Source: Rhodohalobacter halophilus
GTDB lineage: Bacteria; Bacteroidota; Rhodothermia; Balneolales; Balneolaceae
Length of the DNA: 57,010 bases
Direction: 5' to 3'
Assembly (NCBI RefSeq): GCF_001715195.1
Contig: NZ_MDWE01000033.1
Location: forward strand, 1-57,010
Below the pieces are notes generated by a model. The model was not told the origin of the DNA. It did not search any database and was given only the letters and a program-made list of their open reading frames with translations. Below, in pieces: positions 5,690 through 54,810 of this stretch (its first letter is position 1; every line of letters begins with the position of its first letter). Position numbers and translations under genes: made by a program.

Positions 5690-5722
5690 ACTCGTGGCAC
5701 GCCTCAAAGTCGTGCCACGAGT
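5690..5722. repeat. 33-nt palindrome, left copy (family 2)
   Basis: Perfect 12-nt arms, ACTCGTGGCACG and CGTGCCACGAGT, around the 9-nt loop CCTCAAAGT. The whole unit is the exact reverse complement of the unit at 6080-6112; the loop reads ACTTTGAGG there. The two copies therefore face each other across the 58-aa gene. Confidence 0.9.
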
Positions 5723-5736
5723 ATCAAAAAATCTAT

Positions 5737-5765
5737 CCGTCTGACCGTGTGGAACGGTCTGACGG
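5737..5765. repeat. 29-nt palindrome (family 1), copy 1
   Basis: CCGTC-T-GACCG, loop TGTGGAA, CGGTC-T-GACGG: two 5-bp stems with a T-T mismatch between them. It is identical in all 29 bases to the copy at 6035-6063, and related to those at 5983, 6138 and 51173. It ends 8 bp past the stop codon of the 58-aa gene (minus strand). No T-run follows. Confidence 0.85.
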
Positions 5766-5773
5766 GGATCGGT

Positions 5774-5950
5774 TTACTTCTCCAGTTTCTCAATTCTGCC
5801 TTCCAGGTCATCCAACTTTTGCTGAATCTGATTGAGCATGTGGATGATAATCACATGTGTTTTCTTGGCATCGATGCCAACCACGCTCTCTTCGCTTTGA
5901 ATAGCGGATTCGATCTCTTCGAGTTCTTTTTTAGGTATGCTTAAATTCAT
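5774..5950 (-). CDS. Small coiled-coil protein, 58 aa, unknown function
   Basis: An ATG-to-TAA frame on the minus strand encodes 58 residues, beginning MNLSIPKKELEEIESAI and ending in a heptad-like QIQQKLDDLEGRIEKLEK helix. Between them is a short hydrophobic stretch, HVIIIHML. A good ribosome site (AAAGGAAA) lies about 12 nt before the start, which supports real translation. It is charged and highly helical, with no signal peptide. I do not recognise the family. It is the only gene inside a block of palindromes that is nearly mirror-symmetric (5690-6112). It could be an adaptor or DNA/RNA-binding partner of the repeats, or simply the last small gene after the rhodanese gene on the same strand. 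Confidence 0.7.
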   Translation of the reverse strand: MNLSIPKKELEEIESAIQSEESVVGIDAKKTHVIIIHMLNQIQQKLDDLEGRIEKLEK

Positions 5951-5982
5951 GGTTATTTATTTCCTTTTTTATTTCTGTTCAA

Positions 5983-6013
5983 CCCGTTAGACCGCTTAAT
6001 GCGGTCAGTCGGG
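5983..6013. repeat. 31-nt divergent member of the 29-nt palindrome family
   Basis: Outer stem CCCG/CGGG, a 3-nt internal loop, inner stem GACCGC/GCGGTC and loop TTAAT. The inner stem matches the variant at 6138-6166. It lies 32 bp upstream of the start codon of the 58-aa gene, so it could also sit in that gene's leader or promoter. Confidence 0.65.
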
Positions 6014-6034
6014 TATCTAGTTATATTTATTCAT

Positions 6035-6063
6035 CCGTCTGACCGTGTGGAACGGTCTGACGG
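6035..6063. repeat. 29-nt palindrome (family 1), copy 2
   Basis: Identical in all 29 bases to the copy at 5737-5765. It lies between the rhodanese and 58-aa genes. Confidence 0.85.
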
Positions 6064-6079
6064 ATACGGTGTAAGATTT

Positions 6080-6112
6080 ACTCGTGGCACGACTTTGAGG
6101 CGTGCCACGAGT
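6080..6112. repeat. 33-nt palindrome, right copy (family 2)
   Basis: Exact reverse complement of the unit at 5690-5722 (same 12-nt arms, loop ACTTTGAGG). It forms the right boundary of the mirror-like block around the 58-aa gene. Confidence 0.9.
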
Positions 6113-6137
6113 CTCTCACTCTTAATTTGAAATCTAT

Positions 6138-6166
6138 CCATCTGACCGCGAGAAGCGGTCTGATGG
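6138..6166. repeat. 29-nt palindrome (family 1), variant with compensatory changes
   Basis: CCATC-T-GACCGC, loop GAGAA, GCGGTC-T-GATGG. Compared with copies 1 and 2, the outer stem changes from CCGTC/GACGG to CCATC/GATGG on both arms and the inner stem gains one G-C pair. The T-T mismatch and the total length are kept. It ends 3 bp before the stop codon of the rhodanese gene. Confidence 0.8.
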
Positions 6167-50163: not shown

Positions 50164-50335
50164 CGCCGTTCAAAAAAAATCCAATCTGCACACAAAACGC
50201 TGCCTCTATTGCGGCCAGCCGGAACAGCTGGTTTGGGTACACGGTCATGGCCAGTGTGCTCATTGCGGCACTAATGTTGAAGAGTGCTGCCGTGGTGAGA
50301 GCTGCTTCCCTCAAATCGATAACTCAAAGGCATAG
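50144..50335 (+). CDS. Small cysteine-rich zinc-binding protein, 63 aa
   Basis: It has RCLYCGQPEQLVW and CAHCGTNVEECCRGESC: seven cysteines in two C-x-x-C knuckles plus a C-C and a final C, with HGHG between. It is a compact zinc ribbon. It overlaps the MBL gene by 20 bp in another frame, so co-expression is likely. No family name is known to me. Confidence 0.75.
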   Translation: MKSSQNNAVQKKSNLHTKRCLYCGQPEQLVWVHGHGQCAHCGTNVEECCRGESCFPQIDNSKA

Positions 50336-50408
50336 AGTTAAGTAGAATCATTGAGCCCGATTCAATACATTGAGGTGAATGCACAACGCCTTAATCTCGA
50401 CTCTGACC

Positions 50409-51620
50409 ATGAAAAAATTTCTGCTCTGCTCTCTCATTCTCATCACTTCTTTAATTCTTGCTGATTCCGTTCAATCTCAGGATCGTGATCGAGTTCGGGA
50501 TCTGGGAATCCATCCCGGAATTTTACCGACCGGCCCCTTGAATGCCATCACCGATGTAGAAGGTGTGATGGTGGGGCATCAAACATTGATTGAAGGAAAC
50601 AATATCCGAACCGGAGTCACAGCCATTCTCCCTCATTCAGGAAACCTCTACAGAGATCGGGTTCCCGCTGCGGTTTATGTGGGAAATGGTTTTGGTAAAG
50701 CGCTTGGGTTTACTCAGGTTCAGGAGCTGGGTGAACTGGAAACGCCCATCGCACTCACCAATACTCTCAGCATCTTTAACGCCGCGCACGGGGTGGCTGA
50801 TTATGTCTTGAATCTGCCCGGAAATGAAAATGTAGGATCAGTCAATCCGGTAGTGGGTGAAACTAATGACGGCTGGCTGAACGACATTCGGACACGGGTT
50901 GTGGATACCGAAGATGTTTATCAGGCGATTGAGTCTGCCGAATCGGGCCCGGTTGCCGAAGGAAACGTTGGAGCCGGAACGGGAACCCGAGCGCTTGGTT
51001 TTAAGGGTGGCATTGGGACTTCATCCCGCCAGCTACCCGATAATCGCGGGGGATATACGGTAGGGGTTCTGGTGCAGTCCAACTTTGGTGGAATTTTAAC
51101 GGTGAATGGAGCTCCGGTCGGTGAGGAGCTGGGGAATCACTATCTGTCAACTCGCCAGACAACTCACGATACCCGTCTGACCGCTATGAGCGGTCTGACG
51201 GATCAGACAGGTGACAATGGCTACGATTTTGATGTGGACGGCTCCGTAATGATTGTTGTCGCTACAGATGCCCCGATCACCTCCCGCAACCTGGAGCGAC
51301 TCGCCAAGCGCGCGTTTATGGGAATTGCCCGGGTTGGCGGTTTTGCCTCCAACGGCAGCGGCGACTATGTGATCGCTTTCTCCACCCATCCGGATGTTCG
51401 GAACAACCTGGATGAGTCCGGTTCAACCCGTCAAATTACTGAGCTGGATAACAACGCAATGAGTCCGCTATTCCTGGCGGCTGTGGAAGCGACTGAAGAG
51501 GCAATTCTGAACTCCCTGTTTATGGCCGAAACAATGGAAGGACAAGACGGACGTACTCAAGAATCCCTCCCGATTGATGAGGTGATAGAGATTCTGGAGA
51601 GGTACGGTGCTGATCAGTAA
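50409..51620 (+). CDS. P1-family (DmpA/S58) autoproteolytic peptidase, exported
   Basis: A 403-aa precursor. I chose the ATG at 50409, which starts the signal peptide (LLCSLILITSLILADSVQSQ). The body has RDLGIHPGILPTGPLNAITD, GNVGAGTGTRALGFKGGIG and VGVLVQSNFGG. The self-cleavage site is Gly278-Ser279 in DVDGSVMIVVATDAP; Ser279 becomes the N-terminal nucleophile of the small subunit. It releases D- or L-amino acids from amides and peptides. Unusual: residues 255-264 (TRLTAMSGLT) are encoded by a copy of the 29-nt palindrome family, in the linker just before the cut site. It may affect processing. Confidence 0.9.
   Translation: MKKFLLCSLILITSLILADSVQSQDRDRVRDLGIHPGILPTGPLNAITDVEGVMVGHQTLIEGNNIRTGVTAILPHSGNLYRDRVPAAVYVGNGFGKALGFTQVQELGELETPIALTNTLSIFNAAHGVADYVLNLPGNENVGSVNPVVGETNDGWLNDIRTRVVDTEDVYQAIESAESGPVAEGNVGAGTGTRALGFKGGIGTSSRQLPDNRGGYTVGVLVQSNFGGILTVNGAPVGEELGNHYLSTRQTTHDTRLTAMSGLTDQTGDNGYDFDVDGSVMIVVATDAPITSRNLERLAKRAFMGIARVGGFASNGSGDYVIAFSTHPDVRNNLDESGSTRQITELDNNAMSPLFLAAVEATEEAILNSLFMAETMEGQDGRTQESLPIDEVIEILERYGADQ
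51173..51201. repeat. 29-nt palindrome (family 1) inside a coding sequence
   Basis: CCGTC-T-GACCGC, loop TATGA, GCGGTC-T-GACGG. The outer stem equals copies 1 and 2 near 5.7-6.1 kb and the inner stem equals the variant at 6138. It lies in frame in the P1 peptidase and encodes about ten residues. It is 45 kb away from the other copies. Confidence 0.85.
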
Positions 51621-51673
51621 CTATTTTAATACGATCTTGGGATAAGTAATACTGTATAAAATCTTGCTCTGAT

Positions 51674-52564
51674 ATGCCTGAAAAAAAAGTTCACTTGGTT
51701 TTGGGAAGCGGCGGTGCCCGGGGAATTGCCCACATTGCAGTGATTGAAGAATTGGAAAAAGCCGGCTACGAGATTATTGAAGTGATCGGTTGTTCGATGG
51801 GTGCTGTGGTGGGCGGTATTTACGCCGCGGGGCATCTCCCGGAATATAAGAAATGGATTCTGGGGCTTTCTAAACGAGATGTATTTGATCTGCTGGATTT
51901 TACCTTTGCAAAGCAGGGATTTGTAAAAGGAGAAAAACTTTTTGCCAAACATGTGGAAGTAACGGGTGAAGAAAAAATTGAGGACTTCCCTATTCCATTT
52001 ACTGCTGTAGCTACCAATATGCGCAACCATAGTGAAGTGCACTTTAAAAAGGGAGATCTATATAAAGCGTTACGGGCATCGGTTTCCATGCCCGGTTTTT
52101 TTGTCCCCGTAGTTGAAAACGGGCAGGTTTTAGTAGATGGTGGCGTGTTGAATCCGCTCCCCATTAATTTAGTTGAGAAAAAAGAAGATGCTGAGATCAT
52201 TGCAGTCAATCTAAACGGGAAAATTGATTCTAAATATGATAAACCACCCTCACCGGATAAGCTTGAAGAAATGCAAACATGGTTCGATAAAATTCTTCCT
52301 GACGCGATGAAAACGAATCGTAAAACCAAAGCAAAATCTGAATTACCTGCTGAAAAAGATTCTTTTTCACTAATCGAGCTGATGGACCGTTCTTTTAGCT
52401 TTACTCAAGACCGGCTTACGGAACTCATAATTGAATTGTATAAACCCAATCACCTTATTGAAATTCCCCGAAATACCTGTGGTGTTTTTGATTTTGATCA
52501 GGGAAAACGAGTATATGAAATTGGTATGAAAGCCTGCAAGAGCGTAATTAAACAAAACGATTAA
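51674..52564 (+). CDS. Patatin-like phospholipase
   Basis: A 296-aa protein. The oxyanion loop is VLGSGGARGIAHI, the nucleophile Ser is in GCSMGAVVGG, and the catalytic Asp is in VDGGVLNPLP. It uses a Ser-Asp dyad to hydrolyse lipids. No signal peptide, so it is cytoplasmic or membrane-associated. The C-terminal part is Lys-rich. It starts 53 bp after the P1 gene. Confidence 0.93.
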   Translation: MPEKKVHLVLGSGGARGIAHIAVIEELEKAGYEIIEVIGCSMGAVVGGIYAAGHLPEYKKWILGLSKRDVFDLLDFTFAKQGFVKGEKLFAKHVEVTGEEKIEDFPIPFTAVATNMRNHSEVHFKKGDLYKALRASVSMPGFFVPVVENGQVLVDGGVLNPLPINLVEKKEDAEIIAVNLNGKIDSKYDKPPSPDKLEEMQTWFDKILPDAMKTNRKTKAKSELPAEKDSFSLIELMDRSFSFTQDRLTELIIELYKPNHLIEIPRNTCGVFDFDQGKRVYEIGMKACKSVIKQND

Positions 52565-53320: not shown

Positions 53321-53794
53321 ATGAGTACTCTACGCAAACGGATGATCGAAGATCTGAAGAACCGTAACTATTCGCCCAGGACCATCACCGTTTACATAAA
53401 CCGTGTTGCCAAATTTGCCCAATATTTTGGTCAATCTCCGGATCGATTAAATCGTGAACATATCCGCGAGTACCAGCGATATTTAGTCGAAGACAAAAAG
53501 TGCTCCTGGAGCCAACTAAACCAGACTGTGTGTGCTCTGCGTTTTTTCTACAGGGTGTGTCTGAACCAGCCGACCATCGTCGAGTATATTCCCTACCCCA
53601 GCCAACCCAAGTCTTTACCTGTGGTGCTAAGCGGTGGGGAAGTCTATCGCCTGCTGGATACCGCCCGGGACATCAAACATCGCACCGTGTTGATGCTACT
53701 ATATGCAACCGGTGTGCGTATATCCGAAGCCCTCTCGCTACGGATAGGTGATGTGGACAGCCAGCGTATGGTGATTCATGTGCGAGCGGGCAAG
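53321..53794 (+). pseudogene. Tyrosine recombinase (phage-type integrase), 3' truncated
   Basis: The first 158 residues are a normal XerC/D-like integrase: SAM-like core-binding domain (NRNYSPRTITVYINRVAKFA) and the start of the catalytic domain with Arg I in LLYATGVRISEALSL. The frame then leaves the family after HVRAGK: the Lys, H-x-x-R and Tyr are missing. The open frame runs on to 53929 in transposase DNA read out of frame. A fine ribosome site, GGAGG, lies 10 nt upstream of the ATG. Confidence 0.85.
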
Positions 53795-54351
53795 GTAAAC
53801 TCACGCTGGCGGGCCAACTCGACGAACTGTGCCATCCCAACCAGTGGGATGAGTTTGTTGGCCGGCTCAGGCAGACCGAATGGGTGGTGTATGTCAAACC
53901 ACCGTTTGGCTCACCCGGCCAGGTCCTGAAGTATCTGGCCCGCTACACCCACCGGGTGGCTATCTCCAACAATCGGCTGGTTTGCCTGACCGACGGGCAG
54001 GTAACGTTCCGGTACAAAGATTACCGCCAGGGGCACAGCCAGCGCCTGATGCGGCTGCCCGCGGTCGAGTTCATCCGACGGTTCCTGCTGCACAGCCTTC
54101 CAAAGGGATTTGTGCGCATCCGCCACTATGGTTTGCTGGCCAACCGGGTTCGCCAGCAAAACCTGGAATATTGCCGCCGGCTCATAGGCAATAGCGCGAC
54201 AGAGCAGCCCCCGAGGGTTTGCTCACAAACCCAGCCAGCCAATTCTGGCCAACGCCGCACTCCAGACTGGCCATGTCCGAAGTGCAGAAAGGGTGAGATG
54301 CGCTTTATCGAACTGCTGGCGCTGCCAAGAGCCGGACCCATGGTGGCATAA
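53791..54351 (+). pseudogene. IS91-family (Y2) transposase, C-terminal fragment
   Basis: In the +1 frame relative to the integrase, the sequence reads GKLTLAGQLDELCHPNQWDE, then WVVYVKPPFGSPGQVLKYLARYTHRVAISN and VTFRYKDYR, the hallmark of the IS91 transposase C-terminal part. The zinc-finger N-terminus and the first catalytic His motif are missing. A C-terminal CPKCRKGEMRFIE knuckle remains. It has lost its own start; a GTG at 53884 is the first usable codon. It cannot be an active transposase. Confidence 0.88.
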
Positions 54352-54810
54352 AAAATCACAACAATAACCCATGAATCTACTGTTTTATACCGTCTCTGCG
54401 ACAACCATTCCACGTGAGCCTGCCAAATGCTCACAACGGGAGGAGTATGCCTGCCGGGCCCTCCTTGAGAATAAATCAGTTCACCACACCCTTATAAACT
54501 CTCATCATTGCTGCCATTGCATCATTCAATCACCAGGCAGAACCGACCCGGAAAGTCTTTTTAATCCGTCAGCAATCCCAAAAAGAGTGCAACCAAACCA
54601 GACCTCGCCGAAACAAATCCCATAGCCTGATACCGCTACACGGTTCAGCTCAACAAGATTGTATCCGAAGTGCCGGGACTTTTGCCCTAAATACCCCGCT
54701 TACCAATATTACCGGCACTTCCGATACAATCCTTTATATTATGTTGCAATTTGGCTCCGAGCATTTGATATACTATTTTCTGCAGACCGATTTAAATTAA
54801 AAGATCTTTA
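54352..54810. other. Right end of the IS91-type remnant and leader of the restriction gene
   Basis: No gene is seen. It contains a 19-bp inverted repeat with one mismatch: ATTGTATCCGAAGTGCCGG at 54658-54676 and CCGGCACTTCCGATACAAT at 54712-54730, with a 35-nt loop. IS91 elements end in a hairpin used as replication stop, which this may be. The remaining 80 bp hold an AT-rich promoter region before the ATG at 54811. Confidence 0.55.

What the first reader, a model, noticed from the sequence alone, without database searches (positions are those of the whole stretch)
51173..51201. Repeat palindrome inserted in frame within the P1 peptidase gene
A full 29-nt copy of the intergenic palindrome lies inside an otherwise normal gene, encoding residues 255-264 fourteen residues before the Gly278-Ser279 self-cleavage bond. 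This is like Rickettsia palindromic elements, which create new protein segments. Here the addition is in the linker ahead of an autoproteolytic site, so it could alter processing or form an mRNA hairpin.
Basis: partly seen in the sequence, partly recalled or inferred. Interest (0 to 1): 0.75.

Follow-up and report, generated by a model that had tools for sequence, protein, structure and literature searches.

The report
Mobile DNA hairpin inside peptidase linker
A 29-base hairpin repeat of the kind linked to single-strand DNA transposases lies inside a peptidase gene, in a floppy stretch of the protein that related bacteria have filled with such hairpins more than once, which shows how genomic repeats can become protein.

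Summary
51173-51201 is an exact copy of a 29-nt imperfect palindrome (REP-A, CCGTCTGACCGC-N4A-GCGGTCTGACGG) with 32 places in the 3.1-Mb genome. It encodes about residues 255-264 of an S58 (DmpA-type) peptidase, 14 residues before Gly278-Ser279.

It is an intragenic REP. 53 of 96 REP-A copies lie within 20 nt of an upstream stop codon, 98 of 116 keep a T.T mismatch in the stem, and REP-A flanks a RAYT (HUH transposase) gene on both sides in three related genomes. REP-A is in the peptidase linker in 6 of 6 REP-A-rich genomes that have the gene, in both orientations and two reading frames, and in 0 of 32 other linkers compared. A second REP family, flanking a RAYT in G003, sits in the same linker in G024 (intact) and G003 (decayed). 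AlphaFold gives the linker pLDDT under 50.

The Rickettsia-like reading is right in kind, but an effect on processing is unsupported: the linker is long and variable in relatives without REPs too. Most likely a tolerated insertion in a disordered loop. Intragenic REPs, and RAYTs with atypical hairpins in Bacteroidetes, are known; the repeated use of one linker is what stands out.

The parts
51173..51201 (+). REP-A copy, T.T orientation on the coding strand; encodes (T255)RLTAMSGLT264
   Evidence: 0 mismatches in 24 arm positions
51152..51167 (+). probable remnant (5' half) of a second REP-A copy that is present over its whole length but decayed in G023 and G009
   Evidence: linker DNA comparison; assignment in the window is by eye
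50409..51620 (+). S58 (DmpA/P1-type) peptidase gene with an N-terminal helix (residues 2-22) that looks like a signal peptide; ORF can start at 50379
51240..51245 (+). codons of Gly278-Ser279, the expected self-cleavage bond (site known from DmpA, recalled; residues invariant here)
5690..5722 (.). palindrome B (ACTCGTGGCACG...CGTGCCACGAGT), which together with REP-A flanks the RAYT in G007 and G013
5737..5765 (+). intergenic REP-A copy (2 arm mismatches)
5984..6012 (-). intergenic REP-A copy (2 arm mismatches); forms an inverted pair with the next, 22 nt apart
6035..6063 (+). intergenic REP-A copy (2 arm mismatches)
6080..6112 (.). palindrome B
6138..6166 (+). intergenic REP-A copy (2 arm mismatches)

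Best explanation
The segment is a REP element (REP-A) of a family tied to a RAYT, a single-strand (HUH, Y1) transposase. An ancestor took one or two REPs, perhaps an inverted pair, into the codons of the disordered linker that precedes the self-cleavage Ser of the S58 peptidase. Both REP orientations can be read through (the consensus arms have no stop in two of three frames on one strand and in three on the other) and the linker tolerates any sequence, so insertion there survives while insertion elsewhere in genes is mostly purged. In the window's lineage one copy stayed intact and the other was half deleted. Shown: the family, its gene-end placement, strand-specific conserved bases, RAYT flanking in relatives, linker placement, several frames and orientations, predicted disorder. 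Inferred: that a RAYT did the moving, that the insert is neutral for the peptidase, and the order of events.
For: Family: 32 places in the own genome; 9 of 28 genomes of the genus (own included) match at E<=0.001, 7 of them richly (15-57 rows, both strands counted). Co-occurrence: linker copies in G000, G023 (0 and 5 mismatches), G009 (1 and 6), G007 (0), G013 (1) and G016 (4), which are all REP-A-rich genomes with the gene (G005 has no match to it), and in 0 of the 32 other linkers (38 compared: 29, 9; scans; the weak matches at 6-7 mismatches in L032, L047, L055, L346 and L052 lie outside the linker). G016 is read in another frame (EPSRRSDGY), G007 has the opposite orientation (RQTAPSGQTG). 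The tree needs 4 changes of the trait, at least 2 forced by firm branches. RAYT: a 188-aa gene with NHFHF lies between REP-A plus palindrome B on both sides in G007 (REP-A at 0 and 5 mismatches) and, split over two frames, in G013 (0 and 4); the G016 RAYT has REP-A on both sides (1 and 2). Strand-specific conservation: loop A17 99%, A at -2 91% of 98 oriented copies; T.T in 98 of 116, another base than A or T in 2. Second family: TCATCGGATGAC-N5-GTCATCCGATGA flanks a 238-aa RAYT in G003 and is 2 mismatches from the G024 linker palindrome. Disorder: pLDDT under 50 at residues 240-276.
Against: No insertion event was seen: no strain pair with empty and filled site. No REP-A-flanked RAYT was found in the own genome: none near the three Y1_Tnp matches, and the fetched RAYT-like stretch C17:77300-80500 shows no REP-A. 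18 of 20 long linkers without REP-A show no inverted repeat with 9-bp arms (26 of the 30 long linkers were tested), so REPs did not build the long linker. G012 has one REP-A place but matches the peptidase in two abutting pieces, that is a short linker. G045 has a RAYT with REP-A-like neighbours (5 mismatches) but a short, empty linker. G085 falls inside the G000/G023/G009 branch without a REP. G016's linker hairpin is not stronger than control segments (0.214 of 140 as low). GTAG, usual at RAYT-linked REPs, is absent.
Confidence: 0.87

Rival explanations
1. The linker REP is kept because it does something in this gene: as DNA or mRNA hairpin (for example RAYT binding, or a translation pause before the cleavage site) it tunes expression or processing.
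For: All six REP-A-rich genomes with the gene keep a recognisable copy there, in five of six at 0-1 mismatch from the consensus while the partner copy, where seen, is decayed. A second REP family sits in the same linker. Hairpin -19.8 kcal/mol.
Against: Conservation within the linker is not clearly above its surroundings: G007/G013 REP 28 of 29 against 62 of 70 for the rest of the linker; G023/G009 copy 2 core 21 of 22 against 54 of 68 upstream. 18 of 20 long linkers without REP-A have no palindrome. No terminator-like site, no Rfam match at E<=1.
Confidence: 0.1
2. No insertion by transposition: the palindrome arose in the linker by replication slippage or template switching, or spread by gene conversion from intergenic copies; orientation flips reflect template switching at the palindrome.
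For: In 19 orthologous intergenic pairs the arms agree at 95% of 22 positions while 40 nt of flanks agree at 48% (unrelated flanks 32%); at two of these sites, and at the linker copy of G000 against G009, the mismatch is TT in one species and AA in the other.
Against: Two REP families of different sequence, each seen beside a RAYT, occupy the linker; non-orthologous copies are nearly as alike (93%), so arm identity alone does not speak for conversion.
Confidence: 0.12
3. Chance likeness of a coding stretch to the repeat.
For: None beyond the possibility.
Against: 0 mismatches in 24 arm positions; 0 matches in shuffles; the linker inverted repeat exceeds all 60 control segments of the same gene.
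Confidence: 0.005

Closest known systems
Intragenic REPs (GTAG and CGTC families; Di Nocera et al. 2013, PMC3733652; abstract, passages, sections 6 and 15 and part 1 of section 17 read)
   Same: 20-40 bp palindromes, mostly between tandem or convergent genes near stop codons, some inside ORFs; the paper reports different REPs at about the same site of recB in two Xanthomonas species and names flexible linkers as harmless places.
   Different: No GTAG tag; the CGTC here is base-paired, whereas the CGTC families there have an unpaired tag and no dedicated transposase; REP-A flanks RAYTs.
RAYT (TnpA-REP) subclass 2.6 of Bacteroidetes with atypical hairpins (PMC6006769, passages only)
   Same: Bacteroidetes; genes of about 179 aa flanked by secondary structures without the canonical form, copies of which occur elsewhere in the genome; the paper's Y motif YIH[QN]NP fits YIHQNP of the G007 RAYT (compared by eye).
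   Different: The paper's HUH motif for 2.6 is NH[LIV]H, the G007 RAYT has NHFH (as in 2.4); membership was not tested on a tree. No intragenic copies were mentioned in the passages seen.
REP recognition by TnpA-REP, T-T mismatches in REPs, and REPINs (PMC8266576 and PMC7709200 passages; PMC3116915 abstract)
   Same: Imperfect hairpin with a conserved stem irregularity (a bulge needed for activity in E. coli); inverted REP doublets.
   Different: GTAG absent; conserved features here are A at -2, loop A17 and T.T; 15-57 rows per rich genome, both strands counted.
Rickettsia palindromic elements (RPE; PMC2229807 passages)
   Same: Palindromic repeat read in frame inside proteins, tolerated.
   Different: RPEs of 105-146 bp, reported there in 19 reading frames; REP-A is 29 bp, about 10 residues, with a RAYT link; besides this gene I found three other genes with it among the fetched copies.
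DmpA/BapA-type S58 peptidases (PDB 2drh, 5tzb, 1b65, 3n2w by sequence)
   Same: Same family; Gly-Ser aligned.
   Different: Against 2drh the alignment breaks between chain residues 228 and 236 and query residues 253 and 286 (numbered from 50379), so the linker is some 25 residues longer here.

Membership tests
REP element (repetitive extragenic palindrome) | short (20-40 bp) imperfect palindrome in many copies, mostly extragenic | tested here: met
   29 nt, 32 places in own genome; 116 pooled copies: 54 tandem, 42 convergent, 7 divergent, 5 at edges, 8 inside genes, 6 of these this gene, for which five loci had been added on purpose
REP element (repetitive extragenic palindrome) | location just 3' of genes | tested here: met
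   53 of 96 copies with a gene ending towards them lie within 20 nt of its stop
RAYT-associated REP (REPtron) | RAYT gene flanked by the repeat on both sides | tested here: met
   G007, G013 (gene split over two frames), G016; with REP-A-like palindromes also G051 (3 mismatches) and G045 (5): 5 of 59 scanned transposase loci, 2 more with one weak match; not seen in the own genome
RAYT-associated REP (REPtron) | irregularity in the stem that lets the enzyme tell strands apart | tested here: met
   T.T in 98 of 116; loop A17 99% and A-2 91% of 98 oriented copies; binding itself not testable
GTAG REP superfamily | GTAG tetranucleotide at the hairpin foot | tested here: not met
   flank profile of 98 copies shows T-A-C/T, no GTAG
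CGTC REP superfamily | unpaired CGTC tag, 8-9 bp stem, no transposase link | tested here: not met
   CGTC pairs with GACG (96.3% of cells in the 11-pair stem form a pair); RAYT link present
RAYT subclass 2.6 (Bacteroidetes) | HUH motif NH[LIV]H, Y motif YIH[QN]NP, place on the TnpA tree | tested here: inconclusive
   YIHQNP fits, NHFH does not (by eye); no tree made
Rickettsia palindromic element | element of about 105-146 bp in Rickettsia | tested here: not met
   29 bp, a Balneolaceae relative; alike only in being read through in frame
REPIN (inverted REP doublet) | two REPs in opposite orientation close together | tested here: inconclusive
   5 of 11 neighbour pairs within 120 nt are AA then TT (two of them orthologous); linker pair inferred from remnants
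Peptidase family S58 | profile match and Gly-Ser bond | tested here: met
   PF03576 E 7.1e-118; G278, S279 invariant in 30 sequences
Peptidase family S58 | autoproteolytic activity | not testable with these tools
   needs expression

The most novel reading that the evidence does not exclude
The linker ahead of the self-cleavage Ser is a preferred landing or holding site for REPs in this genus: at least two REP families with different RAYTs entered it independently, and a recognisable copy is kept in every REP-A-rich lineage that has the gene because the hairpin has come to serve it, for example as a RAYT binding site or as a translational pause before autoproteolysis.
Probability: 0.12. Interest if true: 0.75.

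Novelty: new member of a known kind. Interest (0 to 1): 0.45.

Why it matters
It is a natural series in which two hairpin families became coding sequence at one protein site, one of them in both orientations and two frames, with a candidate mobiliser (RAYT) still beside its repeats in sister species. That makes it possible to test how REPs insert, how intragenic palindromes are tolerated, and whether autoproteolysis cares about the chain ahead of the nucleophile. It also adds a RAYT-linked REP family without the GTAG tag from relatives of Balneolaceae.

Tried and rejected
Transcription terminator: no terminator-like site in 50300-51700. Known RNA family: none at E<=1 there. Cognate transposase in the own genome: three Y1_Tnp matches, none with REP-A within the fetched flanks. 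Hairpin enrichment in all long linkers: a first crude ranking looked broad, but equal-length controls removed it (others median 0.43, 1 of 20 at or under 0.1). DNA-level selection on the linker copy: not clearly above the rest of the linker. G003 linker searched in the genus by BLAST: in its own genome only itself; the link to the second REP family came with the pattern search. G021/G001: G021's linker holds an inverted repeat (18 paired of 19, 49-nt spacer); elsewhere in those genomes only matches of 19-20 nt; left open.

Literature: (REP with Balneol-) found 0 papers; one irrelevant paper; one search listed 12 of 34 papers, none by title on this linker; three papers, one of them PMC6006769.

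Limits of the counts: gene context rests on ORF rules, not a gene caller. L146 and L148 (own genome) and L232 (G013), where an ORF start reaches over the copy, I judged intergenic; L249 (copy 51 nt into the ORF) I kept as genic because the sequence runs through a His-rich tail into a P-type ATPase; L338 (131-aa ORF around the copy) was not judged. The 116 copies are those with a 5-nt loop and at most 4 arm mismatches (positions 6 and 24 ignored) in the loci fetched; the second batch of G005 is not in them, and the match lists were cut. L058 (partial, G021) was dropped from the first 30 loci; G021 came in through L345. Of the peptidase relatives not compared residue by residue, 22 genomes match in two pieces at most 18 nt apart, which means a short linker.

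Full report
What is there. The window is contig C27 of a 3.12-Mb genome, 97.8% complete. The gene at 50409-51620 encodes a 403-aa S58 peptidase. At 51173-51201 it holds CCGTCTGACCGC TATGA GCGGTCTGACGG without a mismatch to the arms of the repeat.

The repeat family. Twenty-four copies gave a covariance model; it finds 32 places in the own genome, of which the peptidase copy is the only one I place in the interior of a gene. Of 28 genomes of the genus, 9 match at E<=0.001, seven of them richly (G000 42, G023 33, G009 19, G007 15, G013 30, G005 57, G016 23 rows, both strands counted), G012 with two rows and G018 with one. Of 128 genomes of the order, 10 match at 1e-4, two of them outside the genus. 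In 116 pooled copies 54 lie between tandem genes, 42 between convergent and 7 between divergent ones; 53 of 96 with a gene ending towards them lie within 20 nt of its stop codon. On the coding strand of a gene ending at most 30 nt away, 31 of 53 copies show the A.A form, 12 the T.T form and 10 neither.

Strand-specific anatomy. Stem positions 6 and 24 are T.T (A.A on the other strand) in 98, A-T paired in 16 and include another base in 2 of 116 copies. In the 98 copies put in T.T orientation the loop's last base is A in 99% and the base two before the hairpin is A in 91%, against T at the mirror place in 60%. The window's copy has all three features. E. coli TnpA-REP likewise needs a stem bulge and acts on one strand (PMC8266576, passages).

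The candidate mobiliser. In G007 a 188-aa relative of Y1_Tnp (22.8 bits, just under the 23-bit Pfam cut-off) with the sequence NHFHF lies between REP-A plus a second palindrome B on both sides. In G013 the same gene is split over two frames. At what BLAST shows as the same place, G023 holds a short RAYT remnant and an IS200-type gene, and G000 two REP-A copies 104 nt apart with no such gene between. The G016 RAYT has REP-A on both sides, and in G051, another genus, REP-A-like palindromes with 3 mismatches flank a RAYT. In all, 5 of 59 transposase loci scanned have REP-A or a like palindrome on both sides and 2 a single weak match. Relatives of the G007 RAYT at E<=1e-10 occur in 53 of 126 genomes of the order, so most are not tied to REP-A.

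The linker. Relatives of the peptidase were found in 64 of 118 genomes. I compared 38 linkers (29, 9). Eight measure 43-46 residues from NFGG to ATDAP; members of the genus among the 38 measure 57-79, and some from other families up to 105. REP-A is in six: G000, G023 and G009 (G023 and G009 with one intact and one decayed copy, G000 with one intact and half of the other), G007, G013 and G016. These are all REP-A-rich genomes that have the gene; 0 of the other 32 linkers have it. The peptides differ: TRLTAMSGLT (G000), RQTAPSGQTG (G007), EPSRRSDG in another frame (G016). G009 has copy 2 in the orientation opposite to G023 at the matching place. On the gene tree built without the linker the six need 4 changes, at least 2 forced by firm branches, so repeated gain, or gain with loss, is required. 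A separate gain is best supported for G016 (other frame; its branch has support 92/84); for the G000 and G007 groups a shared ancestral pair is as likely.

A second REP family in the same place. G024's linker holds AAGTCATCGGATCAC-CCGAA-GTGATCCGATGACAT, better than all 26 control segments. Its core at up to 3 mismatches occurs at 3 places in G024 (the linker included) and 3 in G003 and in none of the 26 other genomes of the genus (reversed control 0). In G003 two copies, 2 mismatches from the G024 linker version, flank a 238-aa RAYT. G003's own linker has a decayed form (5 mismatches from the G024 version; 0 such matches in 64,392 positions of the other orthologues).

Other in-frame copies. 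Outside this gene, among the fetched copies: in G016 the His-rich N-terminal tail of a P-type ATPase (L249); in G005 two related secreted-looking proteins, one with a Por_Secre_tail domain, sharing a segment that ends in PSxRxxRSDG. By eye these are tail or linker-like stretches; they use another frame than the window's copy.

Effect on the peptidase. AlphaFold (28 sequences) gives mean pLDDT 80.9 but under 50 for residues 240-276; a strand begins at Ser279. The solved relative 2drh lacks most of this stretch. Within the linker REP DNA is not clearly more conserved than its surroundings. I therefore take the insert as tolerated, with no shown role; the mRNA hairpin (-19.8 kcal/mol) would be opened by translating ribosomes (inference).

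What is known. REPs inside genes are described, with some at about the same site in two species (recB; PMC3733652 sections 15 and 17), Rickettsia elements read in frame too (PMC2229807 passages), and RAYTs of Bacteroidetes flanked by atypical hairpins with copies elsewhere in the genome (PMC6006769 passages). I found no paper on REPs in Balneolaceae or on palindromes in S58 or Ntn linkers; the library is open-access only. Hence a known mechanism, a REP family not met in those searches, and an unusually clear case of one linker used repeatedly.

Noticed in passing
window 5690-6166: Palindromes B-A, then A-A-B-A around a 58-aa reverse-strand ORF (5774-5950; coiled-coil-like by eye); the same A+B pairing flanks the RAYT in G007 and G013, so this may be a relic of a composite element.
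   Followed up: partly
L345 (G021) and L037 (G001), peptidase linker: An inverted repeat (18 paired of 19, 49-nt spacer) fills the same linker in G021; G001 has a 90% identical linker in which it looks decayed; no genomic family was found.
   Followed up: partly
L253 1112-2587 and L333 1165-2601 (G005): Two related proteins share a cassette ERSAKSxEDFADLD...QPSxRxxRSDG at different places, its end encoded by REP-A; in L333 it lies ahead of the type IX sorting domain.
   Followed up: partly
L249 1455-3041 (G016): REP-A lies in the His-rich N-terminal tail of a P-type ATPase.
   Followed up: partly
L222 (G023 C6:364410-367450): RAYT remnant next to an IS200-type Y1 transposase gene at the site where G007 has the REP-flanked RAYT.
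   Followed up: partly
window 53321-53929: ORF that looks like a truncated tyrosine recombinase (recalled likeness, no search run).
   Followed up: no
window 54657-54731: Inverted repeat with 28-nt arms, 86% complementary, 19 nt apart; not matched by the REP-A scan.
   Followed up: no
L257/L247 and L264/L241 (G005/G016 orthologous sites): Same intergenic site in two species with the central mismatch TT in one and AA in the other while flanks are 30-45% identical; template switching, or stepwise change through the fully paired form, could explain it.
   Followed up: partly
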